From: Mycolicibacterium arabiense
GTDB lineage: Bacteria; Actinomycetota; Actinomycetes; Mycobacteriales; Mycobacteriaceae
DNA length: 64,000 nucleotides
Assembly: GCF_010731815.2 (NCBI RefSeq)
Contig: NZ_AP022593.1
Coordinates: 1,674,001-1,738,000 of the forward strand
Reading direction: 5' to 3'
Shown here: positions 12,474-59,316 of the stretch, piece by piece
Numbering within the stretch: the stretch's first letter is position 1
Layout: the number at the start of each line of letters is the position of its first letter
Translations under genes and position numbers: made by a program
Notes under the pieces: model-generated
The model's input: the letters and a program-made list of their open reading frames with translations, nothing else
Database searches by the model: none
What the model was told of the DNA's origin: nothing

Positions 12474-13148
12474 ATGTCCGGGTACGGCCAGTTCTGTCCG
12501 GTGTCCAAGGCGATGGAACTGCTCGATGAGCGGTGGACGATGCTCGTCGTCCGCGAACTGCTCCTGGGTAGCCGTCATTTCAACGACCTTCGCCGCGGCG
12601 TTCCGAAGATGTCGCCTGCGTTGCTGTCGAAACGGCTCAAAGCCCTGGTGCGCGCCGGGGTGGTGCAGCGTGAGGAGGTCGACGGCCGTACCGCCTATTC
12701 GCTGACCGAGTGCGGTCGCGAACTCGGCGCGGTGGTCGACGCGCTGGGTCGCTGGGGGGTGCGCTGGATAGGCGAACTCGGTGACGAGGATCTCGACCCG
12801 CATCTACTGATGTGGGACATCCACCGCACCGTTCCGATCGACTCCTGGCCGGCGCAGCGCACCACCTTGGCCTTCCGTCTCGACGGGGTCGCCGCCAAGG
12901 CGTCCCGGTGGTGGCTGGTGGTCGCCGACGGCAAGGCCGATGTGTGTGACTTCGATCCGGGCTACGAGGTGGCGGGGACGGTGGAGACCAGCCTCCTGAC
13001 CCTCACCCGCGTGTGGCGCGGCGACATCGGGTGGACTCGCGCCATGCGCGACGGCAGCGTCGCGCTGACCGGCCCGGCCGACATCCGCCGCGCCATCCCG
13101 ATGTGGATCGGCCAGGGCGGGCTGGCCGACGTACCGCGACCGGCGTGA
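12474..13148 (+). CDS. HxlR-family transcriptional regulator with C-terminal extension
   Basis: A 224-residue winged-helix regulator. ATG 12474 follows GGGGGTGAT (12461-12468), a plausible ribosome site; GTG 12459 is an alternative. Residues 4-100 form the HxlR domain: Cys near the N-terminus in GQFCPVSKAMELLDERWTM, RHFNDLRRGVPKMSPALLSK as recognition region, and the wing VVQREEVDGRTAYSLTE. The single Cys-Pro pair resembles the redox or aldehyde-sensing cysteine of HxlR/HypR proteins. Residues 125-224 form an extra alpha/beta domain, similar in size to SCP2-like sterol-carrier modules seen in actinobacterial HxlR proteins; this could bind a hydrophobic ligand. Confidence 0.85.
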   Translation: MSGYGQFCPVSKAMELLDERWTMLVVRELLLGSRHFNDLRRGVPKMSPALLSKRLKALVRAGVVQREEVDGRTAYSLTECGRELGAVVDALGRWGVRWIGELGDEDLDPHLLMWDIHRTVPIDSWPAQRTTLAFRLDGVAAKASRWWLVVADGKADVCDFDPGYEVAGTVETSLLTLTRVWRGDIGWTRAMRDGSVALTGPADIRRAIPMWIGQGGLADVPRPA

Positions 13149-48316: not shown

Positions 48317-48679
48317 GCCTGCTCCTCTCGGGGTGATCGCGACGTCGCACGCCGCCCGTAATAGATGTAGCCGCTGCGCGATCTGAACACAATCTCCCAT
48401 TTGCTGGAAAACCAGGGAATTGGTCGGATTTCGCGCCGAATTTTGCCAGTCGGGTTCATACGCTGGGCTAATAACCGAAATTGCCATTGCAGAGTTTTGA
48501 CGCGCGTGCACAATTTTTTGCCGCAGGCTTGTGACCTGCGGGTAACCATATTTCACCGCTGGTTTCCTGGCTCGAACGGCCCGATACTGACTGCGCGATT
48601 CGCATTAATCCGATGCGAATGAACGGTGGCCGGCGGCGCCGTACTACGCCGCTCGGCTGCCCTACGAATGGGGCAATAA
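48317..48679. other. AT-richer intergenic region with three hairpins
   Basis: 363 bases without a gene, more AT-rich than its surroundings (for example ACAATTTTTTGC at 48510-48521). Three perfect stem-loops follow one another toward the gene at 48680: CCGCAGG/CCTGCGG (48521-48541), ATTCGCAT/ATGCGAAT (48598-48620) and GCGGCG/CGCCGC (48633-48652). It must contain the promoters of the MaoC-like gene and the gene at 48680. Confidence 0.6.
48598..48620. promoter_or_regulatory. Perfect 8-bp inverted repeat before the GNAT-like gene
   Basis: ATTCGCAT and ATGCGAAT around a 7-base spacer (TAATCCG), 60 bases before ATG 48680. It could be an operator or a leader hairpin; the AT-containing spacer favours protein binding. 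Confidence 0.4.
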
Positions 48680-49399
48680 ATGAGCGTTCCCAGCCTGGAA
48701 TTTCACGACTACGCGGCTTTTCGCATGCCCGAGAACATCAGCTGGTGGGACAGGGACTCGAGGTCCACGATGGTCATATCGACCCCGGAACTCGACTCCG
48801 CGCTGTGGTCGGAATACCTGTGCTGCGCCGAGCGCAGCTACCGCAAGCACGGCGTCGAGAAGGCGCTCGACGTGGCGGCGATCGCCGACGGGGCGGACAC
48901 CGCGATCTTCTGGGCACTGGTCGACGACGACGGGGTCATGCTGGGCGGCGTTCGCGCCAAGGGGCCGCTGACGGGAGCCGACGACTCGCACGCCGTGGTG
49001 GAGTGGGCGGGCCACGAGGGGTTGCCCATGGTGCGCAAGATGATCGACGACCGGGCGCCGTTCGGCATCCTGGAGATGAAGTCGGCGTGGACGACGGACG
49101 ATCGGAGCCGGGCGGGCCTGGTGTCCACCGCTCTGGCACGCAGTGGCTTTCACGCACTGGAACTCATGGGCATCCAGTTCTGCATGGCGACCTCCGCGCC
49201 TCACATCCTGGAGCGCTGGGGATCGTCGGGCGGCGTGGTGGCCCCCATCCCCGCGGCGGCGTACCCCGACGAGCGCTACCGCACGAAGATGATGTGGTGG
49301 GACAGGCGGACGTTCGCCAATCATGCTGACCCCGAACAGTTGTCGAAGATCCTGCGGGAGACCGCGGCGATCGCCTCGCGTCCGGCGATCGCCTTGTAA
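48680..49399 (+). CDS. Unrecognised protein with GNAT-like features
   Basis: A 239-residue protein, ATG 48680 after AATGGGGCAATAA (weak ribosome site). I do not recognise a named family. The second half has the look of an N-acyltransferase: APFGILEMKSAWTTDDR, then AGLVSTALARSGFHALELMG, then ATSAPHILERWGSSGG and a final YPDERYRTKMMWWDRRTF. The ordered strands, the Met-Trp-Trp-Asp end and the middle aromatic dyad resemble GNATs of the autoinducer-synthase/FeeM (N-acyl amino acid synthase) type. No membrane segment or signal is seen. It stands alone between the structured leader and the c-di-GMP gene. Function unknown. Confidence 0.6.
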   Translation: MSVPSLEFHDYAAFRMPENISWWDRDSRSTMVISTPELDSALWSEYLCCAERSYRKHGVEKALDVAAIADGADTAIFWALVDDDGVMLGGVRAKGPLTGADDSHAVVEWAGHEGLPMVRKMIDDRAPFGILEMKSAWTTDDRSRAGLVSTALARSGFHALELMGIQFCMATSAPHILERWGSSGGVVAPIPAAAYPDERYRTKMMWWDRRTFANHADPEQLSKILRETAAIASRPAIAL

Positions 49400-49891
49400 C
49401 CGCACGCAACGGCGTCGCGAGCGCTACGGCCGGCCGGATTGCCGAAATCACCGGACCGTCGACCGACCGAGCCGAGGCGGCCCGCGTCCGCCATGGTCGC
49501 TCGCCGACACGCACCGGGCGGCTGGCGCAGTAGCCGAGGTGCGCGAGACGTCCGCCGGCGCGGCCGCCCCCTCAGACCTCGTCGACGACCGTCGCGACGG
49601 GTAGCCAGGCGCCGGGCTCCCGCCGATCGCCCGCGACCACGCCGCACCGCGGGCTCGGCAACGTCGACGTTGCCGGCAGGTTGCGGTGAGTGGTCGAACC
49701 GAAGCGCCCGGGTCGCCAGTCCCTCGAGCACGACGGGCCCCGTCCGTGCACGGCCACTCGCGCAGCGCTCGTCTCCAGCGACGCGCCCGCAGTTGGCCGA
49801 TACCGAGGTTGCGCGGCCACGATGACCAATCGGTGTCGGTCGCGGGCCGTACGCAGCATGAACACACACGACCGGCGATACTGTCTACACA
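49400..49891. other. 492-bp region without a convincing gene
   Basis: GC-rich with open frames in all phases but none with a ribosome site or recognisable similarity. Two overlapping minus-strand frames (around 49572-49892 and 49321-49869) contain short protein-like stretches (MLRTARDRHRLVIVAA; VVLEGLATRALRFDHS) that could be remnants of one frameshifted gene. The promoter of the GGDEF-EAL gene must lie at its right end. Confidence 0.4.
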
Positions 49892-51748
49892 ATGTCCGGA
49901 GGAACGCCTCGCGTAAGCCTTGAGCGGCTGGTGACCGACGTCGCCGTCGACCTCATGGCGTCGAATGCGGCCACCTCCGTACCGGTGGCCCGCAAGGTGC
50001 TCGCGATGCTCGTCGCGTACTTCGACGTCGACGTCAGCTTCCTGCGCTACAACGACCATTCCATTCGGGCATCCCTGCTGGTGGCCGAATGGCCCGAGCG
50101 CCTGGACGTACCCGACCCCGACCCGCTCGGCGTCGTCTACTTCGCCGACGCCGACCCCGTGTTCGCGGCGTCGGAGCACGGCAAGAAGCCACTGGTGTTC
50201 CGGCCCGAGAACGAGGACTACCAACGGCGCATCGAGGAGGCGCGCACGGTCCCCCAGACGTCGATGGCCGCAGCACCGCTGGTGTCGGGCGACCTCACGA
50301 CCGGGGTGCTCGGCTTCGTGAAGTTCGGCGATCGCGAGTGGCGGCCGGAGGAACTCAACGCGCTCGAGGCCATCGGATCGCTGTTCGCGCAGGTGCAGGC
50401 ACGGGTGAAGGCCGAGGATCAGCTCCGTCACCGCGCCGAGCACGATGACCTGACCGGCCTGTGCAACCGGCGCGCGCTGCTCGACCACCTGGCGGCCAGG
50501 CTGGCGCCGGGTCGCCCGGGTCCGGTCGCGACGCTGTACTTCGACCTCGACCGGCTCAAGACCATCAACGACTACCTCGGACACACGGCAGGCGACTGGT
50601 TCATCCGGGTTCTCGCCGACCGGCTCCAGCAGAGCACCAAGCGCCCCAGCGTCATCGCACGCCTCGGCGGCGACGAATTCGTAGTCGTGCCGACCGAGCC
50701 GACGTCGGCCACCGAAGCCGAGGAACTCGCCGAACACCTGCTGAGCGTGCTGCGCGAGCGCGTTGCCATCGACGGCGAGATGCTCACCCGCACCGTCAGC
50801 ATCGGCGTCGCGCTCGGCGTTCCCGGTCGCGACACCACCAAGGAACTCCTGCGCAGAGCCGATCAGGCGTTGATGACCGCCAAGGCCGAGGGCGGCAACC
50901 GCGTCGCGGCGGCCACCGAGGAAATGGCCCTGGAGTCGGAGTTCCGCAACGACATCGAGTTGCACCTGCAGAACGTCATCGAGAACGGGGCCCTGTTCCT
51001 GCGTTACCTGCCCGAGGTCGACATGCGCACCGGACGGGTGCTCGCCACCGAGGCCCTGGTCCGGTGGGAACACCCCACCCGAGGCCTGCTGTCCCCGGCC
51101 TCGTTCATCGCGGTGGCCGAGTCCATCAACCTGGCCGGTGAACTCGGCCGGTGGGTGATGCGCACCGCCTGCGCGGAGTTCGCGCGGTGGCGCGCCACGG
51201 GCGTCGCGGACGACGTGGTGCTGCGGCTGAACGTCTCCCCCGTGCAGCTCGTCGCCGGGGGATTCGTCGAGTCGGTGGCCGGCATCCTCGCCGAGTTCGA
51301 CCTGCCCCGCGGGTCGGTGTGCGTCGAGATCACCGAGAGCGTGGTGGTGCACGACCTGGAGACCACGAGCATCACGCTGGCCGGCCTCCGCGAGGCGGGC
51401 GTCAAGGTGGCGATCGACGACTTCGGCACGGGCTACAGCGTGTTCGCACACCTCAAGCAGTTGCCGGTGGACGTCCTCAAGATCGACCGCAGCTTCGTGA
51501 CGGATCTGGGCCGCAACCCCGACGACCTCGCGATCGTGCGCGCGATCATCGCGCTCGCCGATGCCTTCGGTCTGCAGCTGGTGGCCGAGGGCGTCGAAAC
51601 GGAGGCGGCGGCGCAGACACTGCTGCGCCACGGCTGCAGGCGGGCGCAAGGCTTCCTGCTGTCCGAGCCCCTGGCCGGCGACGAGATGCTGGCGTTGCTC
51701 GAAGAGGGTGGCGTCTCAGTGCACTTTCCGGCAGTGCCCGGGACCTGA
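49892..51748 (+). CDS. GAF-GGDEF-EAL c-di-GMP turnover protein
   Basis: A 618-residue protein, ATG 49892 after GTCCGGAGGA... at proper spacing. GAF domain about residues 25-170; linker helix with QVQARVKAEDQLRHRAEHDD; GGDEF domain with RLGGDEFVVVP (GGDEF 259-263); EAL domain with EAL at 387-389, then ITESVVVHDLE, IDDFGTGYS and KIDRSFV. All catalytic signatures are intact, so both diguanylate cyclase and phosphodiesterase are possible, as described for the M. smegmatis and M. tuberculosis (Rv1354c) proteins with the same architecture. No RxxD inhibitory site is present before GGDEF. The GAF ligand is unknown. No membrane segment. Confidence 0.92.
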   Translation: MSGGTPRVSLERLVTDVAVDLMASNAATSVPVARKVLAMLVAYFDVDVSFLRYNDHSIRASLLVAEWPERLDVPDPDPLGVVYFADADPVFAASEHGKKPLVFRPENEDYQRRIEEARTVPQTSMAAAPLVSGDLTTGVLGFVKFGDREWRPEELNALEAIGSLFAQVQARVKAEDQLRHRAEHDDLTGLCNRRALLDHLAARLAPGRPGPVATLYFDLDRLKTINDYLGHTAGDWFIRVLADRLQQSTKRPSVIARLGGDEFVVVPTEPTSATEAEELAEHLLSVLRERVAIDGEMLTRTVSIGVALGVPGRDTTKELLRRADQALMTAKAEGGNRVAAATEEMALESEFRNDIELHLQNVIENGALFLRYLPEVDMRTGRVLATEALVRWEHPTRGLLSPASFIAVAESINLAGELGRWVMRTACAEFARWRATGVADDVVLRLNVSPVQLVAGGFVESVAGILAEFDLPRGSVCVEITESVVVHDLETTSITLAGLREAGVKVAIDDFGTGYSVFAHLKQLPVDVLKIDRSFVTDLGRNPDDLAIVRAIIALADAFGLQLVAEGVETEAAAQTLLRHGCRRAQGFLLSEPLAGDEMLALLEEGGVSVHFPAVPGT

Positions 51749-51899
51749 GCGCGCGTTCCGCACGTCGCGCAGCGCTCGGTGCACGGCTGAGCACGGGCGG
51801 CGGGTGTCGACGTCACGCGTTGCCGTGCGCAAGATCTCCACTCGACCGAAACGGCTCGCGGTACGTCCCACCAGGCACACCCGCCGCTGCTCCCCGCCG

Positions 51900-52608
51900 A
51901 CGCCCGCCGGGGGCTCGCCAGTGAACCCGTCGTGCTCGTTCGGCGCCACACTGATGCCCATGCGGGCCCGCACCGCCAGGGGCCCATCCGGTGTGGCGAA
52001 CACGGCGCCCACGACGCGTCCGTCGTCGAACACCAGTCGGCGCAGTGGCGTACCGGTCAGCACGTCGACGCCGCGACTGCGCGCCTGGCCGACCATCCAG
52101 TCCCGTAGTTCGGGCGCGCCCATGCCGTGGCGCCAGCCGATCGAGCCGATGGGCAACACCTCGACGGTCCCGCCGTCGGCTGCGCGCATCGTGTGGTCCC
52201 CCCGGCGAAGACGCGGGAGTGGAGCATCCCGTAGGGCGACGTAAGGCACTGCACGGCCCAATCGCTCAGACGCGAGCCGATGAAGGGTTCGATCTCGCCC
52301 TCGCGGACCGCACTGACGACGCGCGTCGGCACCGGCACGTCGCGAGCGACGTGGGCAGACCCGGGCACCCACGCGGCGAAGTCCGCGAAGTAGTCGGCGG
52401 TCTTTGCGTCGGCGGCCTCGGTGATCAACCAACCGCAGGCCTGAACGCGCCGTCGGGTGGCGACACCCAACCCTCGGTTGATCCGAACCGGTGGGGCGTC
52501 CGCGACCAAGACGTCGCATCCCGCGTCGACGGTGGCGATCGCTCCCGCGAGACCTCCAATGCCGGCACCGATCGAGACGAGGTCGACCTCGCGGTCCCAC
52601 TTCTGCAT
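51900..52608 (-). pseudogene. Broken FAD-dependent oxidoreductase gene
   Basis: Starting at ATG 52608, the first frame reads VDLVSIGAGIGGLAGAIATV (Rossmann FAD motif) and continues through MLHSRVFAGG; then the reading frame is lost in a run of six C (52198-52203 on the plus strand). Similarity continues in another frame from MRAADGGTVEVLPIGSIGW to GRVVGAVFATPDGPLAVRAR. After about 51930 nothing similar follows, so the C-terminal half (about 250 residues of a normal 500-550) is absent. It resembles flavoproteins of the fumarate-reductase/3-ketosteroid dehydrogenase type. A sequencing error in the C-run would remove the frameshift but not the truncation. Confidence 0.75.
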
Positions 52609-53005
52609 CAGCTACGCCCGCTGTGAGGATGCTCACTCCGGGATGCGCCATCCCGGCCGCGACGGGCGACGAAGCACCGTGCGACTGCGCCGACGCCGGC
52701 CCTCGGCGCGACACCCGGTCGCCGCGGGGCCGTTCTGGGCGCTGCCGGCCGAAGGTGCACGTCAACGCGGTTCTGAACCGCGTAGACGTGGTGGCGGACC
52801 TCACCCGGAGCTAGACCCGAAGTCATCACGATTGCGACTTTACATACCGATGGGATGCTATGCAGCGCGTACCTGAACCCGGAGTTTGGCGGGACGCGGC
52901 CCGCGGTCCGAGTCCGTGGATCGCAGCAAATTCCTGTAGAACTTCCTGGGGTGCACGCGCACACGGGGGTCGGTCAGTACGGAAAGTCGAGAACGGGCAG
53001 CAACG
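52609..53005. other. 397-bp region upstream of the first ScbR-like gene
   Basis: No gene is recognised. It holds the 27-bp palindrome at 52761-52787 and, further right, AT-richer bases (GATTGCGACTTTACATACC at 52830-52848) that may be a promoter (TTGCGA as -35 and TATGCA near 52859 as -10). Confidence 0.4.
52761..52787. promoter_or_regulatory. 27-bp palindrome upstream of ScbR-like regulators
   Basis: ACGCGGTT-CTG-AACCGCGT (52765-52783) is a perfect 8+8 dyad; GTC (52761-52763) and GAC (52785-52787) extend it with a single mismatched pair. Length and symmetry are those of autoregulatory elements bound by ScbR/ArpA-type regulators, two of which are encoded downstream. Confidence 0.6.
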
Positions 53006-53683
53006 GTGAGTGACAACCCCGAACGTCGACCCGACGGCACGCGCATGCAGATCCTGCGGGCAGCGGCCCAGCAACTCGCGCGCGAGCCGTACGGTCGAGT
53101 CAGCCTCGACCGCGTCCTCGAGATCGCCAACGTGACCAAGGGCGCGCTGTACTTCCACTTCCGCTCCAAGCACGACTTGGCGATCGCGATCGTCGAGAAC
53201 CATGCGGAGGCTCGGGCGGAGACATTCAGCGAGGCGTTCGCGCAGTCGCGTCCAGGCCTCGAATCGATGATCGAACTCTCGTATCGCATCGGCAGTGACG
53301 ACGTCGGCGACGACATGGCCCGCGCCGCGCTCAACCTCCTCGAGGCACTCGGCCGGTTCGATGGCCTGCAGTCCAAGGTGCTCGACGGGTGGATCACCGC
53401 CTTCACCGACCTCGCCCGGCGTGCCGCCGACGACGGCGACATCGCAAACGGCGTCGACCCCGCACACGTCGCACGCCTGGTGGTGTCGCTGTACCTGGGC
53501 CTGCGACAGACGGGCAATCTCGACGATCCGGTCGCGTTCACGTGCGATCTCGAGGCGCTTTGGCTACTCATCCTCCCGGGTTTCGCCAACCCGGACCGGC
53601 TCCCGTATCTGAAGGGCTTCGTGGAGCGACGCACCGCACGCGCGATCAAGAATGCAGCATCGCGCAGCACCGACGTTCTATGA
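53006..53683 (+). CDS. ScbR-type TetR regulator (first of two)
   Basis: A 225-residue TetR protein starting at GTG 53006. The HTH ends in IANVTKGALYFHFRSKHDLAIAIVE; VTKGALYFHF is the signature of the gamma-butyrolactone receptor (ScbR/ArpA) group. The C-terminal ligand pocket begins about residue 75. In Streptomyces these proteins release DNA on binding a butyrolactone; in mycobacteria the ligand is not known. It is followed after 50 bases by a paralogue in the same direction. The long palindrome at 52761-52787 lies 219 bases upstream. Confidence 0.82.
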   Translation: MSDNPERRPDGTRMQILRAAAQQLAREPYGRVSLDRVLEIANVTKGALYFHFRSKHDLAIAIVENHAEARAETFSEAFAQSRPGLESMIELSYRIGSDDVGDDMARAALNLLEALGRFDGLQSKVLDGWITAFTDLARRAADDGDIANGVDPAHVARLVVSLYLGLRQTGNLDDPVAFTCDLEALWLLILPGFANPDRLPYLKGFVERRTARAIKNAASRSTDVL

Positions 53684-53733
53684 TTCCGCTTTAGCTTGTT
53701 TTCCGGGGACCGAGCCAACGGAGGTAGTCGAAC

Positions 53734-54444
53734 GTGGTGCGCCAGGCCAGATCCGAGGCGACCCGACGGAGGATCATCGACTCGGCAATTGATTTGATCA
53801 ACGAGATCGGTTATCCCGCCGCTGGATTGGCGGACATCATCGAACGCGCCGACCTCACCAAGGGCGCGCTCTACTACCACTTCGATTCGAAGGAAGCCCT
53901 GGCGACCACGATCATCGAGGAGGGTGCGAACAAGGTCCTCGAATCGTTCCGGGCGGCGGGCCGGTCCAGTTCCCCCGCGATGGAGAACATCGTCCACGGC
54001 CTGTTCGTGGTCACCGACGTACTTGGCAACGACCGTGTCGCCCAGGCCGCCGGTCGCTTGCTGCGCACGTTCGGCGGATTCAACCCCGCGGCAAAGAAGA
54101 CGTACGCCGTGCTGCTCGACGAGATGACGATGCTGACCACGAGCGCCATCGCCGAGGGCGACCTCCGCTCCGAACTCGACCCGGCCGAGGCGAGCAGCGC
54201 CATCATCGGCTCGCTGCTCGGTGCCGAATTGCTGTCCAGTGCCTTGACCGACGGCAAGGATCTCCGCGGGCGATTCGGCCGCACCTGGGCCCTTCTGTTG
54301 CCTGCACTGATCTCCGAGGATTCGCTGGCCTACTACCGCGAGTTCCTGGCCCGGCAATCGCTGCGCGGCGATGCCCGCGGTGCTGAACGCCCCGCCGAGA
54401 CCCGCGGTGACGATCAACCCGGCGACTCCCCGCTGGATCGCTGA
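53734..54444 (+). CDS. ScbR-type TetR regulator (second of two)
   Basis: A 236-residue TetR protein starting at GTG 53734 (a second GTG follows directly), with GGAGG at 53720-53724. HTH: IDSAIDLINEIGYPAAGLADI, then RADLTKGALYYHFDSKEALAT. The C-terminal part ends in an acidic/basic tail (RGDDQPGDSPLDR). It is a divergent paralogue of the preceding gene; a pair of receptor-like regulators often includes one that binds the signal and one pseudo-receptor. It precedes the acyl-CoA dehydrogenase pair by 91 bases and may regulate it. Confidence 0.82.
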   Translation: MVRQARSEATRRRIIDSAIDLINEIGYPAAGLADIIERADLTKGALYYHFDSKEALATTIIEEGANKVLESFRAAGRSSSPAMENIVHGLFVVTDVLGNDRVAQAAGRLLRTFGGFNPAAKKTYAVLLDEMTMLTTSAIAEGDLRSELDPAEASSAIIGSLLGAELLSSALTDGKDLRGRFGRTWALLLPALISEDSLAYYREFLARQSLRGDARGAERPAETRGDDQPGDSPLDR

Positions 54445-54535: not shown

Positions 54536-55768
54536 ATGGACGTGACGTGGTCCGCCGCCGACCTCGAGTTCCGGGACGAGGTGCGGGCGTTCCTGCACGA
54601 GAAGCTGACGCCGGATCTGCGTGACGCCGGTCGGTTGATGACCAGCGTGTACAGCGACCACGAGGCCAGCCTGCGGTGGCAGGCCATCCTGCACGAGCGG
54701 GGGTGGGCCGCGCCGGCGTGGCCCGTCGAGTACGGCGGGTGCGATTGGAGCCTCACCCAGCACTACCTGTTCAGCCGTGAGTCGACGCTGGCCGGCGCGC
54801 CGTCACTGTCGCCGATGGGCATCCGGATGGTCGCCCATGCCATCATCGCATTCGGCACGTCCGCTCAGAAGGACTACTTCCTGCCGGGCATCCTGACCGG
54901 CGAGGTGTTCTTCTGCCAGGGCTATTCCGAACCGGAATCCGGATCCGACCTGGCCTCGCTGACCATGGTGGCGGTCGACGATGGTGACGACCTGGTGTGC
55001 ACGGGCAGCAAGATCTGGACGACCCACGCCCGGGAGGCGAACTGGATGTTCGCCCTCGTCCGCACCTCCCGCACGGGCAAGAAGCAACAGGGCATCACGT
55101 TCGTCCTCATCGACATGACCTCGCCTGGGATCGAGATCCGGCCCCTGGTCATGACGTCGGGCGAGGAGGTGCAGAACCAGGTCTTCTTCGATGACGTCCG
55201 CGTTCCCAAGTCGAACGTGATCGGGCAGATCGACGACGGCTGGACCGTGGCGAAGTACCTCCTCGAGTTCGAGCGTGGCGGAGGCGCAACGGCGCCCGCG
55301 CTTCAGGTGATGGCGGAGCAGGTGGCCGCGAACGCAGCAACACAGCCGGGGCCCACGGGTGGGCGCCTGATCGACGACCCGTCGTTCTCGCGCAAGCTGG
55401 CCGACGCCCGCATCCGCACCGACGTGCTGGAGATCCTCGAGTTCCGGGTTCTCGCCGCGCTATCCGGTGGCGGGCATCCCGGAACGGATTCGTCGATGCT
55501 GAAGATCCTGAGTACCGAGCTGAGTCAGACGATCACCGAACTGGCAATGGAGGCCGCTGGACCTCGCGGCCGCGCATATCAGCCCCATGCCACCCGTCCC
55601 GGCGGCCCGGTTGCCGAATTCGATCCTCCGGCAGACGGATACGTGAGCGGCGAGCCGTGGCAGGCCGTCGCGCCGCTGCGGTACTTCAACGATCGTGCGG
55701 GCTCGATCTACGCCGGTAGCAACGAGATTCAACGCAACATTCTGGCCAAGACTGCTTTGGGTCTCTAG
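54536..55768 (+). CDS. Acyl-CoA dehydrogenase (alpha-type of a pair)
   Basis: A 410-residue acyl-CoA dehydrogenase starting at ATG 54536. GYSEPESGSDLASLTMVA and KIWTTHAREANWMFALVRT mark the flavin region; the C-terminus is GSIYAGSNEIQRNILAKTALGL. A 30-residue insertion rich in Gly/Pro (GPRGRAYQPHATRPGG) precedes it, as in steroid side-chain dehydrogenases (FadE26/28/30 class). It is followed after 13 bases by the smaller partner. CoA-bound substrate unknown, likely bulky. Confidence 0.88.
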   Translation: MDVTWSAADLEFRDEVRAFLHEKLTPDLRDAGRLMTSVYSDHEASLRWQAILHERGWAAPAWPVEYGGCDWSLTQHYLFSRESTLAGAPSLSPMGIRMVAHAIIAFGTSAQKDYFLPGILTGEVFFCQGYSEPESGSDLASLTMVAVDDGDDLVCTGSKIWTTHAREANWMFALVRTSRTGKKQQGITFVLIDMTSPGIEIRPLVMTSGEEVQNQVFFDDVRVPKSNVIGQIDDGWTVAKYLLEFERGGGATAPALQVMAEQVAANAATQPGPTGGRLIDDPSFSRKLADARIRTDVLEILEFRVLAALSGGGHPGTDSSMLKILSTELSQTITELAMEAAGPRGRAYQPHATRPGGPVAEFDPPADGYVSGEPWQAVAPLRYFNDRAGSIYAGSNEIQRNILAKTALGL

Positions 55769-55781
55769 GTAAGGACTTCCA

Positions 55782-56906
55782 GTGGATTTCACGCTTTCCG
55801 ACGAGCAAAAGATGCTGCGCGACGGGCTCACCAAGTTCCTCTCCACGCGGTACGACCTCGCCAAGAGCCGTGCAGCCGTCAAGACCGGCGCGGGTTGGCA
55901 GCCCGAGACCTGGCGTGCCTTCGCCGAGGACCTCGGCATCCTCGGCGCCGCACTACCCGAGGACGTCGGTGGCATCGGGGGTGGTCCCGTCGAGGTGATG
56001 GTGATCGCCGAGGCGCTCGGCCACGCGCTGGTGGTCGAGCCCTATGTCGACACCTCCGTGGTGGCTGCCGGACTGCTGCGTCGCGCCGGGGGCCCTCGGG
56101 CCACCGAGCTGCTCGAGCGGATCGCCGCGGGGCGCGCCGTCGTCGCCCTCGCGGCCTCGGAAGCAGAGTCGGGCGACGACTGGTCGCGCGTCACGACGAC
56201 TGCGACGGCCGACGGCACCGGCTGGCTCCTGCACGGCACCAAGCTCGTCGTCGTCTCCGCACCGCTTGCCACCCACCTGCTGGTGACGGCGCGTACGCAG
56301 GCGGGCACCTCGCTGTTCCTGGTGGAGGTCGAGGCTGCGGGCTCCGCCCTCGTGCAGCACGCCTACCGCACGGTCGACGACCGCTGGGCGGCCGACGTCG
56401 AGTTGTCCGGCGTGCGACTGGATTCCGACGCGCTGCTCGGCGACGACGGCGCGGCGTGGCCGTCGTTGTCACGGGCGCGCGACGAGGGTGCCGCCGCGGT
56501 GTGCGCCGAAGCGGTCGGATGCATGCGGAAGGTGTTGGCCGACACCGTCGAGTACAGCAAGCAGCGGCATCAGTTCGGACAGCCGATCGGAGGCTTCCAG
56601 GTTCTCCAGCACCGCATGGTCGACATGCACATGGAGGTGGAGCAGGCCGCGGCAGCGGTACTGCTCGCCGTCCTCAACCTCGAGGCAGACGAGGCCGAAA
56701 GGGCGAAGGCCGTCTCGGCGGCGAAGGTCACCATCGGGCGCGCGGCCCGGTTCGTCGGACAGAACGCGGTGCAGTTGCACGGTGGGATGGGCATGACCGA
56801 GGAACTCGCCATCGGCCACTACTTCAAGCGACTGACCGCCGTCCAGTACGAATTCGGCAGCACCGACTCCCACCTCGCGCGGTACGCAGAGCTGACGACG
56901 GGCTGA
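55782..56906 (+). CDS. Acyl-CoA dehydrogenase (beta-type of a pair)
   Basis: A 374-residue partner dehydrogenase starting at GTG 55782, 13 bases after the alpha-type gene. The N-terminal helices show FLSTRYDLAKSRAAVKTG, a motif seen in FadE27/29-type subunits; the C-terminus (QLHGGMGMTEELAIGHYFKRL) retains the GGxG motif. The middle domain lacks a strong flavin motif. A heterotetramer with the preceding protein is likely. The end is followed by a dyad of the TGGACA type. Confidence 0.86.
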   Translation: MDFTLSDEQKMLRDGLTKFLSTRYDLAKSRAAVKTGAGWQPETWRAFAEDLGILGAALPEDVGGIGGGPVEVMVIAEALGHALVVEPYVDTSVVAAGLLRRAGGPRATELLERIAAGRAVVALAASEAESGDDWSRVTTTATADGTGWLLHGTKLVVVSAPLATHLLVTARTQAGTSLFLVEVEAAGSALVQHAYRTVDDRWAADVELSGVRLDSDALLGDDGAAWPSLSRARDEGAAAVCAEAVGCMRKVLADTVEYSKQRHQFGQPIGGFQVLQHRMVDMHMEVEQAAAAVLLAVLNLEADEAERAKAVSAAKVTIGRAARFVGQNAVQLHGGMGMTEELAIGHYFKRLTAVQYEFGSTDSHLARYAELTTG

Positions 56907-56912
56907 CCAACC

Positions 56913-56928
56913 CTGGACACCTGTCCGA
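56913..56928. promoter_or_regulatory. Operator-like dyad, copy 1 (before TetR 57062)
   Basis: CTGGACA-CC-TGTCCGA. The inner GGACA/TGTCC arms are perfect. It is the first of two copies of the same motif upstream of the TetR gene and lies 7 bases after the dehydrogenase stop. Confidence 0.55.
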
Positions 56929-57053
56929 CAACGACCCGGGATGACTGTGGACGGCCCGCGCGTCGTGAGCCGAGCGCAGTGCATCGAGCTGGTATTTCGT
57001 CCTGTTCATGGATGTTTCGTGGGTCATTGCCAACCCCATTGCGGTCAGCTAGC

Positions 57054-57069
57054 CTGGACACATGTCCAG
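57054..57069. promoter_or_regulatory. Operator-like dyad, copy 2 (over the TetR start)
   Basis: CTGGACA-CA-TGTCCAG, perfect 7-bp arms around two bases, overlapping the ATG at 57062. Binding there would stop transcription or translation start of the TetR gene. The copy at 56913-56928 shares 14 of 16 bases. Confidence 0.65.
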
Positions 57070-57652
57070 TTCAGCGGTGACCCACGTCACCCGCCTACGG
57101 GACCCGCACGCTCACCACGGTCGCACGCAGCAGCGCGTGCTCGGAGCTGCCGCCTCGATGCTGGACGAGTCGGCTCATCCGGACGTCTCGGTCGCCGCGC
57201 TCGCAGCGCGCGCTCGCGTCGCGCCGACCGCCCTGCGCGCGCACTTCCCCTCGCTCGACGCGGTCTTCGCCGAGCTGTACCTGCATCACGTCTCGACGCT
57301 GCCACTGGTGATCGACCGATCCGCCCGCGTCGAGGCGCGCGTGGGTGCCCAGCTGCGGGCGATCACGATGATCCTGGCCGACCGGCCCGGCCTGGCCCGG
57401 ACGTGCACGCGTGCCTTGCTGTCGACCGACGATCCAGCGGTCGCCGACGTCCGTGCCCGCATCGCGGCAGAGGTACGGCGCCGAGTGGCGGCTGCGCTCG
57501 GCACCGGGGCATGGCCGGAGGTGCTCGCCACCGTGGAGACCGTGTTCTGGGGCGCGTTGCTGCAGGCCCAGTCCCGCGACATCGATTACCGGATCATGGC
57601 CGATCGCCTCGACACGATGCTGTCGCTGATCCTCCCAGGGGACGACGGCTAG
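57062..57652 (+). CDS. TetR-family regulator
   Basis: A 196-residue TetR protein starting at ATG 57062, inside the dyad CTGGACA-CA-TGTCCAG. HTH: VLGAAASMLDESAHPDVSVAAL, then RVAPTALRAHFPSLDAVFAEL. No ribosome site is visible, and a start of transcription at or near the ATG is possible. It sits between the acyl-CoA dehydrogenase pair and the Ltp2-like/DUF35 genes, all in one direction, and probably autoregulates and controls these. Confidence 0.83.
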   Translation: MSSSAVTHVTRLRDPHAHHGRTQQRVLGAAASMLDESAHPDVSVAALAARARVAPTALRAHFPSLDAVFAELYLHHVSTLPLVIDRSARVEARVGAQLRAITMILADRPGLARTCTRALLSTDDPAVADVRARIAAEVRRRVAAALGTGAWPEVLATVETVFWGALLQAQSRDIDYRIMADRLDTMLSLILPGDDG

Positions 57653-57694
57653 CAGCGCCGCACCGGCCACCACTTCTGCAGGAGGACAACGGGT

Positions 57695-58900
57695 ATGGGG
57701 TTACGTGGCGATGCCGCGATCGTCGGCTTCACCGAGCTTCCCGCGACCAAGCGGCCCACCGGGCCCCTCGAGTTCAACCTCGAGCAGTGGGCACGTCTGG
57801 CTGCGGCGACACTCGCCGATGCCGGCCTGCAGGCCTCCGACGTCGACGGCATCTGCACCGGCCACCTGCAGGAATCGCAGATCTTCGTGCCGTCGACCAT
57901 CGTCGAGTACCTGGGCATCCGGGCGAACTTCGCCGAACTCGTCGACCTCGGCGGCGCCAGCGCCTCGGGCATGGTGTGGCGCGCAGCGGCTGCCATCGAG
58001 CTGGGAATCTGCAACGCCGTGCTGTGCGTCCTACCCGCCACTCCCCTGACGCCCGTGAGCGAGCACAAGCCGGTCGACTTCGGGGACATGCTGTACTTCG
58101 GCGCGTCGAGCAACCGATACGGATCGCCACAGGCCGAATTCGAGATCCCGTACGGCAATCTGGGCCAGAACGGACCCTACGGCCAGGTGGCCACGCTCTA
58201 CGCCGCGACGCACGGCTACGACGAGCGGGCGATGGCCAAGATCAGTGTCGACCAGCGGGTGAACGCGAATCACACGCCCGGGGCGATCTTCGCCGATACG
58301 CCACTGACCGTCGACGACGTGCTGGCCAGTCCGGTGATCGCGTCGCCACTGCACATGCTCGAGATCGTGATGCCCGTTCTCGGTGGTGCCGCCGTCCTGG
58401 TCGCGAACCCGGAAGTCGCCCGCCGCAGCCGCAATCGGCCGGTGTGGATCAAGGGATTCGGCGAGCGGGTGCCCTACAAGACGCCGACGTACGCCGAGGA
58501 CCTGCTGCAGACACCGATGATCAAGGCGGCCGAGAGTGCCTTCGCGATGGCGGGTCTCGGCCCGGCCGACATGGACATGGCATCGATCTACGACTGCTAC
58601 ACCATCACCGCGCTGTTGAGCCTCGAGGACGCCGGCTTCTGCCGCAAGGGCGAGGGTCTGCGGTTCGTTTCAGACCACGACCTCACGTTCCGCGGCGACT
58701 TCCCGATGAACACCGCGGGCGGTCAGCTCGGCTACGGCCAGGCAGGCACGGCGGGCGGCATGCACCACGTGTGCGATGCGACCCGCCAGATCATGGGACG
58801 TGCCGACCGAGCCCAGGTCACCGACTGCCACCGCGCCTTCGTGTCGGGCAACGGCGGCATCCTCTCCGAGCAGACCACTCTCGTCCTGGAGGGCGACTGA
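57695..58900 (+). CDS. Thiolase-superfamily lipid-transfer-like protein (Ltp2-type aldolase)
   Basis: A 401-residue thiolase-fold protein starting at ATG 57695, after GGAGGAC. It lacks the nucleophilic Cys of thiolases; the equivalent part is LGGASASGMVWRAAAAIE. SIYDCYTITALLSLEDAGFC places tyrosines where Ltp2 retro-aldolases need them, and GGQLGYGQAGTAGGMHH near the end is typical of SCP2-thiolases. Ltp2 cleaves the C-C bond of 17-hydroxy-20-oxo steroid-CoA together with a DUF35 partner. The next gene, two bases on, encodes such a DUF35 protein, so an aldolase complex is likely. Confidence 0.85.
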   Translation: MGLRGDAAIVGFTELPATKRPTGPLEFNLEQWARLAAATLADAGLQASDVDGICTGHLQESQIFVPSTIVEYLGIRANFAELVDLGGASASGMVWRAAAAIELGICNAVLCVLPATPLTPVSEHKPVDFGDMLYFGASSNRYGSPQAEFEIPYGNLGQNGPYGQVATLYAATHGYDERAMAKISVDQRVNANHTPGAIFADTPLTVDDVLASPVIASPLHMLEIVMPVLGGAAVLVANPEVARRSRNRPVWIKGFGERVPYKTPTYAEDLLQTPMIKAAESAFAMAGLGPADMDMASIYDCYTITALLSLEDAGFCRKGEGLRFVSDHDLTFRGDFPMNTAGGQLGYGQAGTAGGMHHVCDATRQIMGRADRAQVTDCHRAFVSGNGGILSEQTTLVLEGD

Positions 58901-58902
58901 CG

Positions 58903-59316
58903 ATGAGCAGCACCAGCCGGCCCATGCCGATTCCCACGCCCACGACGCGGCCCTTCTGGGATGCGTTGGCCAGACACGAGATTCGCATCCAATACTCGCC
59001 GTCTGCCGGCCGCTACGTGTTCTACCCCCGGGTGCTCGCGCCCGGCACGCTGGCCGACGACCTGGAGTGGCGCGAGATCAGCGGTGGGGGAACGCTATAC
59101 ACGTTCACGGTCAGCCATCGACCGGTCTCACCGCACTTCGTCGACGACGTGCCCCAGATCCTCGCCGTCGTGGAATGGGACGAGGGACCGCGCTTCTCCA
59201 CCGAGATCGTCAACGCCGCGCCCGATGAGGTCCGGGTCGGCATGCGGGTGCGGCCGGTGTTCACCGACCATCCCGACGCAGGCATCACCATGCTGCGGTA
59301 CGAACCCGCCGACTGA
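58903..59316 (+). CDS. DUF35 OB-fold protein, partner of the Ltp2-like aldolase
   Basis: A 137-residue protein starting at ATG 58903. It has the OB-fold part (GGGTLYTFTVSHRPVSP, VRPVFTDHPDAGITMLRYEP) and an N-terminal segment corresponding to the rubredoxin-like zinc ribbon, but the usual CxxC pairs are replaced (IQYSPSAGRYVFYPR), so no zinc can bind there. In ChsH2/Ltp2 systems DUF35 proteins activate the aldolase. Coupled to the Ltp2-like gene by a two-base gap. Confidence 0.85.
   Translation: MSSTSRPMPIPTPTTRPFWDALARHEIRIQYSPSAGRYVFYPRVLAPGTLADDLEWREISGGGTLYTFTVSHRPVSPHFVDDVPQILAVVEWDEGPRFSTEIVNAAPDEVRVGMRVRPVFTDHPDAGITMLRYEPAD

What the first reader, a model, noticed from the sequence alone, without database searches (positions are those of the whole stretch)
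48317..54444. Possible signalling locus: GNAT-like synthase, c-di-GMP enzyme and two ScbR-type receptors
Within 6 kb lie a GNAT-like protein with features of N-acyl signal synthases, a GAF-GGDEF-EAL protein and two autoregulator-receptor-like TetR proteins with a 27-bp palindrome. Proximity suggests, but does not prove, a small-molecule signalling system in a mycobacterium, linked to acyl-CoA metabolism downstream.
Basis: inference. Interest (0 to 1): 0.7.

Follow-up and report, generated by a model that had tools for sequence, protein, structure and literature searches.

The report
Acyl-tryptophan enzyme beside c-di-GMP gene
A mycobacterium carries an enzyme gene predicted to join fatty acids to tryptophan, next to a second-messenger gene, while its usual partner gene sits millions of bases away beside an oxygenase gene, which suggests an unreported variant of a recently described lipid pathway.

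Summary
The 239-residue GNAT-like protein (48680-49399) is homologous in sequence family and gene order to TrzA, reported in December 2025 to N-acylate tryptophan for the oxazolone lipid tryptazolone (PMC12856293). That paper already notes adjacent c-di-GMP genes and suggests signalling.

New here: the partner gene trzS is missing from the window locus but lies 3.7 Mb away, directly behind a cytochrome P450 gene. This is a rule: all 25 trzA genomes examined have trzS; adjoining trzA it has no P450 beside it (16 of 16), otherwise it has (9 of 9). P450-linked TrzS form one clade, yet the switch recurs across the TrzA tree.

The two ScbR-like TetR genes have an operator candidate (TTACATACCTTTAGAATGTT-like) in 41 of 43 TetR-bearing loci and 0 of 37 others. 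TetR presence does not track trzA; in eight other genomes the TetR pair accompanies an exopolysaccharide cluster.

So: synthase plus c-di-GMP module, supported; TetRs as receptors of its product, not supported. No metabolite, expression or binding was tested.

The parts
48680..49399 (+). trzA homologue: GNAT-fold N-acyltransferase, 239 aa (predicted N-acyl-tryptophan synthase)
   Evidence: 1200 homologues; AF2 fold FeeM/LasI; adjoins Rv1355c-family trzS in 49 of 80 related loci; dN/dS 0.11 against L031
49400..49891 (.). Gap where 49 of 80 related loci carry trzS (ThiF plus nitroreductase-type oxidase fusion); no trzS here
   Evidence: the genome's only copy over cut-off is at G000:C2:5442284-5444389, outside the window
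49892..51748 (+). GAF-GGDEF-EAL protein, 618 aa, GGDEF and EAL motifs present
   Evidence: Pfam; motifs; homologue in 71 of 80 loci
51716..52608 (-). FAD-binding-like gene, frame broken in the window; 297 aa and open in L031 and L034
52758..52790 (.).
52840..52859 (+). Conserved ARE-like operator candidate TTACATACCGATGGGATGCT; starts 166 bp before tetR1
   Evidence: one site in 41 of 43 TetR-bearing loci, none in 37 TetR-less loci
53006..53683 (+). TetR1, ScbR-like TetR regulator, 225 aa
53734..54444 (+). TetR2, ScbR-like TetR regulator, 236 aa
54536..55768 (+). Acyl-CoA dehydrogenase (PimC-like below cut-off), 91 bp behind tetR2; possible co-transcribed target
55782..56906 (+). Acyl-CoA dehydrogenase (PimD-like below cut-off)

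Best explanation
The locus is a variant tryptazolone-type locus. TrzA (48680-49399) is predicted to transfer a short acyl chain from acyl-CoA to tryptophan (inferred from homology to characterised TrzA; product not tested). The acyl-tryptophan is then cyclised and oxidised by a TrzS that is no longer at this locus but 3.7 Mb away, in a cassette with a cytochrome P450, which is predicted to add a further oxidation (inferred from strict gene linkage). The GAF-GGDEF-EAL protein next to trzA makes or breaks c-di-GMP, so the acyl-amino-acid pathway and this second messenger are coupled, by co-expression or by sensing (linkage shown, coupling inferred). The ScbR-like TetR pair controls its own promoter, and probably the divergent FAD gene and the downstream acyl-CoA dehydrogenases, through an ARE-like site (site conservation shown, binding inferred); it is not a dedicated receptor of the trz product. 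In eight other mycobacterial genomes the same pair accompanies an exopolysaccharide cluster, so a surface-polysaccharide output linked to c-di-GMP is likely there (inferred).
For: Fold and family. Locus identity: TrzS = NF005901 Rv1355c family at 952.7, 977.6 and 997.5 bits for three loci, directly behind trzA; PMC12856293, parts 1 to 4 of 7 read. Co-occurrence: 25 of 25 trzA genomes have trzS over cut-off, 35 of 36 trzA-less genomes do not. Own remote trzS and P450. P450 rule: 9 of 9 non-adjacent against 0 of 16 adjacent, Fisher p 4.9e-7. Ten of 12 tested genomes whose trzA locus lacks an intact trzS have a full-length copy elsewhere with a P450 homologue in the 1.5-kb flank. P450-linked TrzS fall in one clade with one unlinked row (SH-aLRT 97), while absence of an intact adjacent trzS needs 11 changes on the TrzA tree, at least 10 forced by supported branches. 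Operator. Exopolysaccharide link.
Against: No metabolite, expression or binding data. The genome has a second, diverged trzA-like gene at C2:3.05 Mb that could instead be the TrzS partner. Substrate is carried over from a homologue; identity to the characterised proteins was not measured. Of the 12 genomes just named, two have no intact trzS elsewhere: one metagenome bin has none (G068), one has trzS in two halves about 2.3 Mb apart (G075). One bin (G069) holds both TrzS types. G015 has trzS without trzA; L101 has trzA plus P450 without a full trzS. In four of 16 TetR-pair genomes (G001, G017, G031, G036) the site pattern with up to 2 mismatches was not found near the TetR genes (in G017 a weaker 18.9-bit site is there). 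The site matrix was trained on TetR1-upstream regions, so the TetR2-only loci (8 of 9) and TetR-less loci (0 of 37) are its independent tests. Genomes are related, so Fisher p-values overstate independence.
Confidence: 0.68

Rival explanations
1. Closed signalling circuit: the trz product is secreted and bound by the two ScbR-like TetR proteins, which control the locus together with c-di-GMP.
For: 31 of 80 trzA loci hold both TetRs, downstream of the GGDEF-EAL gene; ScbR-like family; ARE-like site whose ACATAC half matches the CprB/ArpA consensus printed in PMC4150764; acyl-tryptophan reported mainly in the supernatant.
Against: TetR pair is independent of trzA: 9 of 23 with, 7 of 14 without; 37 of 80 trzA loci lack both TetRs in the fetched flanks, and no site of 20 bits or more lies at trzA.
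Confidence: 0.12
2. The TetR pair senses an acyl-CoA or lipid intermediate and mainly controls the downstream acyl-CoA dehydrogenase operon, standing beside trzA by history only. (Compatible with the best explanation for trzA.)
For: tetR2 ends 91 bp before the dehydrogenase gene on the same strand; the dehydrogenases stay at the locus in some relatives without the TetRs, such as L038, L042, L045.
Against: Some loci with both TetRs and the site show no dehydrogenase match at 40 per cent identity in the fetched flank (L061, L069); in G006 and G030 sites lie at polysaccharide-type genes.
Confidence: 0.35
3. The window trzA works without any TrzS: N-acyl-tryptophan itself is the end product, and the remote P450-TrzS serves another substrate.
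For: trzA is kept under purifying selection without adjacent trzS (dN/dS 0.11); acyl-tryptophan accumulates outside cells in the homologous systems.
Against: trzS is present in 25 of 25 trzA genomes, and in L037, L049, L051, L062 and L077 the P450-linked trzS lies behind trzA in the same locus.
Confidence: 0.12
4. Chance neighbourhood of unrelated genes.
For: None beyond the lack of functional data.
Against: GGDEF-EAL near trzA in 71 of 80 loci and genome co-occurrence.
Confidence: 0.02

Closest known systems
trzAS tryptazolone pathway (Rv1356c-Rv1355c; M. smegmatis; R. jostii RHA1), PMC12856293
   Same: TrzA-family acyltransferase, Rv1355c-family TrzS in the genome, c-di-GMP gene next door
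   Different: trzS is not adjacent but 3.7 Mb away in a P450-trzS cassette; the paper's main text has no occurrence of P450, CYP or TetR
tyzACB tyrazolone pathway, PMC10404671 (passages seen)
   Same: acyltransferase, ThiF cyclase and flavin-dependent oxidase logic
   Different: separate cyclase and oxidase genes; tyrosine and C12 chains (as told)
oxzAB oxazolone pathway of Pseudoalteromonas (as told in PMC12856293)
   Same: acyltransferase plus ThiF-oxidase fusion
   Different: phylum; no P450 or c-di-GMP link told in the parts read
FeeM N-acyl amino acid synthase and LuxI-type AHL synthases
   Different: 9 and 12 per cent identity in those alignments; no match to them by sequence search
Streptomyces ScbR/ArpA/CprB autoregulator receptors
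   Same: NF041196 is the best family; ACATAC half-site as in the printed CprB/ArpA consensus
   Different: scores under the curated cut-off (127.1, 143.2 against 150); a butyrolactone synthase gene was not sought

Membership tests
TrzA N-acyl-tryptophan synthase | N-acylates L-tryptophan with short acyl-CoA | not testable with these tools
   Needs an enzyme assay
TrzA N-acyl-tryptophan synthase | Homologues lie directly before an Rv1355c-family trzS and next to a GGDEF-EAL gene in relatives | tested here: met
   trzS adjacent in 16 of 25 genomes and 49 of 80 loci; GGDEF-EAL in 71 of 80 loci
TrzAS two-gene locus | trzS adjacent to trzA | tested here: not met
   Absent at the window locus; only copy over cut-off at G000:C2:5442284
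LuxI/FeeM-type GNAT | GNAT fold | tested here: met
LuxI/FeeM-type GNAT | Closer to FeeM/AHL synthases than to other GNATs | tested here: inconclusive
LuxI AHL synthase | Makes acyl-homoserine lactone from SAM | not testable with these tools
   Needs an enzyme assay; no Pfam or NCBIfam match for the protein
ScbR autoregulator receptor (NF041196) | Score over curated cut-off 150 bits | tested here: not met
   127.1 and 143.2 bits
ScbR autoregulator receptor (NF041196) | ARE-like site upstream of its own gene | tested here: met
   41 of 43 TetR-bearing loci; ACATAC half as printed for CprB/ArpA; binding not tested
ScbR autoregulator receptor (NF041196) | Binds a diffusible lactone or similar ligand | not testable with these tools
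   Needs binding assay
GGDEF-EAL c-di-GMP enzyme | GGDEF and EAL catalytic motifs present | tested here: met
   GGDEF 259-263, EAL 387-389, DDFGTG 509-514; no RxxD in the spacing scanned before GGDEF

The most novel reading that the evidence does not exclude
Mycobacteria carry interchangeable chemotypes of one small-molecule pathway: a plain tryptazolone type (trzS behind trzA) and a P450-modified type (P450-trzS cassette anywhere in the genome), swapped repeatedly and never both over cut-off in the 25 whole genomes examined (one metagenome bin outside that set holds both), while trzA and its c-di-GMP partner stay in place. This would resemble pherotype switching of a communication signal that feeds c-di-GMP and exopolysaccharide control.
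Probability: 0.17. Interest if true: 0.85.

Novelty: new variant of a known kind. Interest (0 to 1): 0.52.

Why it matters
PMC12856293 calls the physiological role of mycobacterial oxazolones a major unresolved question. A second, nearly mutually exclusive P450-bearing form of the pathway predicts undescribed modified tryptazolones in environmental species, and the recurrent exchange of the two forms is a pattern expected of signals or weapons rather than of housekeeping lipids (my inference). Separately, a conserved operator candidate for an ScbR-like TetR pair, found with c-di-GMP genes and in some genomes with an exopolysaccharide cluster, gives a concrete DNA site to test in mycobacteria.

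Tried and rejected
TetR pair as receptors of the trz product: not supported. TetR site upstream of trzA: only weak hits, 12.4 bits in L040 and 11.9 bits in L070, below 20 bits. N-acyl-tryptophan as sole end product: considered, then weakened when trzS was found elsewhere in the genome. Exopolysaccharide genes inside the 80 trzA loci: none at E<=1e-15 with 13 query proteins. PDB sequence searches with the protein and its alignment gave nothing at E<0.1. Literature searches; only PMC12856293 held 'tryptazolone'. Papers: PMC12856293, parts 1 to 4 of 7 plus term searches of its main text; PMC10404671, PMC4150764 and PMC7554373, passages only; others, search listings only. Alignment A1 held one useless 3-residue row by mistake and was replaced by A2.

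Rows dropped or chosen: the TrzS tree used hits of at least 600 bits (61 of 80 loci) plus 11 remote copies; three partial copies (L047, L096, L103) and 16 loci without a hit were left out. In the TrzA tree L103, whose trzS is broken, was labelled as having it. In one search one trzA and one trzS per genome were entered by me; for G017 and G030 I entered a trzA match other than the best-scoring one, which does not change their class (not adjacent). P450 matches were taken at E<=1e-140 and over 150 bits. The whole-genome trzS search covered the genomes of 15 loci; seven loci without trzS (L034, L075, L079, L090, L101, L107, L110) were not searched that way. One search covered 20 of the 61 genomes.

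Full report

What the gene is. A scan of named genomes gave 141 encoding stretches, of which the best 80 were kept with up to 10 kb flanks. In 71 of 80 a GGDEF-EAL homologue is in the flanks. In 49 of 80 a roughly 2.1-kb gene sits directly behind the GNAT-like gene; three tested examples score 952.7 to 997.5 bits for NF005901, the Rv1355c family, with ThiF and nitroreductase domains. PMC12856293 (parts 1 to 4 of 7 read) reports that Rv1356c (TrzA) N-acylates L-tryptophan and Rv1355c (TrzS) turns the product into a tryptazolone. It remarks that rv1354c and rv1357c, predicted c-di-GMP genes, are adjacent, and calls the physiological role unresolved.

The missing partner. The window has no trzS between 49400 and 49891. 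The genome's only copy over the cut-off is at G000:C2:5442284-5444389, its match starting 12 bp behind a P450 gene, with a TetR gene on the other side. Across 61 genomes, all 25 with trzA have trzS over cut-off, and 35 of 36 without trzA do not; the exception is G015. Among the 25, trzS adjoins trzA in 16 and none of these has the P450 beside trzS; in 9 it does not, and all 9 have it, at gaps of -15 to 1117 bp (Fisher p 4.9e-7, relatedness not corrected for; in G028 trzS is split between contigs). In the 80 named loci, 12 with full-length trzS also hold the P450 and 49 do not. Of 12 tested genomes whose trzA locus lacks an intact trzS, 10 have a full-length copy elsewhere with a P450 homologue in the 1.5-kb flank; one bin (G068) has none, and G075 has trzS in two halves about 2.3 Mb apart. 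One bin (G069) holds both types.

Evolution. In a TrzS tree of 72 rows the 23 P450-linked copies fall in one clade with one unlinked row (L074), SH-aLRT 97, quick method. In a TrzA tree of 82 rows the state 'no intact adjacent trzS' needs 11 changes, at least 10 forced by well-supported branches. The window's TrzA with L031 and L034 is sister to L032, which keeps an adjacent trzS. The two TrzS forms thus appear to have been exchanged repeatedly under a trzA that stays put. Purifying selection on trzA continues without adjacent trzS (dN/dS 0.11 to L031; 0.14 to L032). A second trzA-like gene in the genome (G000:C2:3052731, 53 per cent identity) lies on a long branch and cannot be ruled out as the TrzS partner.

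Regulators. Both TetR proteins are closest to NF041196 but below its cut-off. Fifty bases further on lies a block kept in all three. Regions upstream of tetR1 hold TACATAC, mostly followed by CTTT or TTTT and then GAATG or a near form, in 30 of 32 loci scanned, L031 and L034 set aside. A 20-bp matrix from these finds one site of 20 bits or more in 41 of 43 loci with TetR1 or TetR2 and none in 37 loci without; 8 of 9 TetR2-only loci, not used in training, have it. At 11 bits, 43 hits occur in 1.55 Mb against 1 in one mononucleotide shuffle. The ACATAC half equals that of the 22-bp CprB/ArpA consensus quoted in PMC4150764 (passage seen). No site of 20 bits lies at trzA or the GGDEF-EAL gene in these 80 loci.

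Regulon. A looser pattern search in 20 genomes gave 30 hits against 8 for the reversed control. Of the 16 genomes with the TetR pair, 12 have a hit near the TetR genes; G001, G017, G031 and G036 do not. In G006 one site precedes tetR1 and another precedes a run of genes that includes WecG-type transferase, Bac_transf, Polysacc_synt, glycosyltransferases, Wzy_C and Wzz domains. In G030 two exact matches lie on a contig with a Wzz homologue, trzS, the P450 and a GGDEF-EAL gene. The Wzz protein is found in 8 of 61 genomes, and all 8 have the TetR pair (p 3e-4 among 37 congeners). The TetR pair always comes with the GGDEF-EAL gene (16 of 16) but not preferentially with trzA (9 with, 7 without). 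I read this as two modules that share a c-di-GMP hub.

Limits. No metabolite, expression or binding evidence exists here for the window organism. Substrate assignment is by homology. The P450's reaction is unknown; its best solved relative is deposited as a putative cytochrome P450 (7wzl, 262 bits). Operator function is inferred from conservation.

Noticed in passing
L146, L147 (G006) and L148, L149 (G030 contig C50): Wzx/Wzy/Wzz-type exopolysaccharide clusters with TetR-linked sites; the G030 contig also holds trzS, a P450 and a GGDEF-EAL gene. Domain scans were run on the G006 genes only.
   Followed up: partly
G000:C2:3052731-3053369 (L114 7106-7933, minus strand): Second, diverged trzA-like gene; the ORF list of the fetched 15 kb showed no trzS or GGDEF-EAL gene by eye.
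   Followed up: partly
window 51716-52608 (-): FAD-binding-like gene with a broken frame; open in L031 and L034.
   Followed up: partly
L153 (G017) near 12692: 26-bit TetR-type site away from the TetR genes, between genes that resemble a sugar kinase and a lipoprotein (names from recall of the sequences, not from a search).
   Followed up: no
L101 (M. simulans), and G023:C5:649680-653757: trzA-like gene, then P450, then a separate nitroreductase-like match without a ThiF part: possibly a third arrangement.
   Followed up: no
G015:C168:36926-39046: trzS over cut-off in a genome without any trzA match.
   Followed up: no
L103 (Mycobacterium sp. DL99, G075): trzS in two halves about 2.3 Mb apart, one behind trzA and one beside a GGDEF-EAL gene, as after a rearrangement through the gene.
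   Followed up: no
L076: Contig labelled as an Acidobacteria bin carries a mycobacterial-type trzA-trzS-GGDEF-EAL order; possibly mis-binned.
   Followed up: no
window 54536-59316: Paired acyl-CoA dehydrogenases, a third TetR gene, a thiolase-like ORF and a small ORF, resembling by recall a steroid side-chain degradation operon.
   Followed up: no
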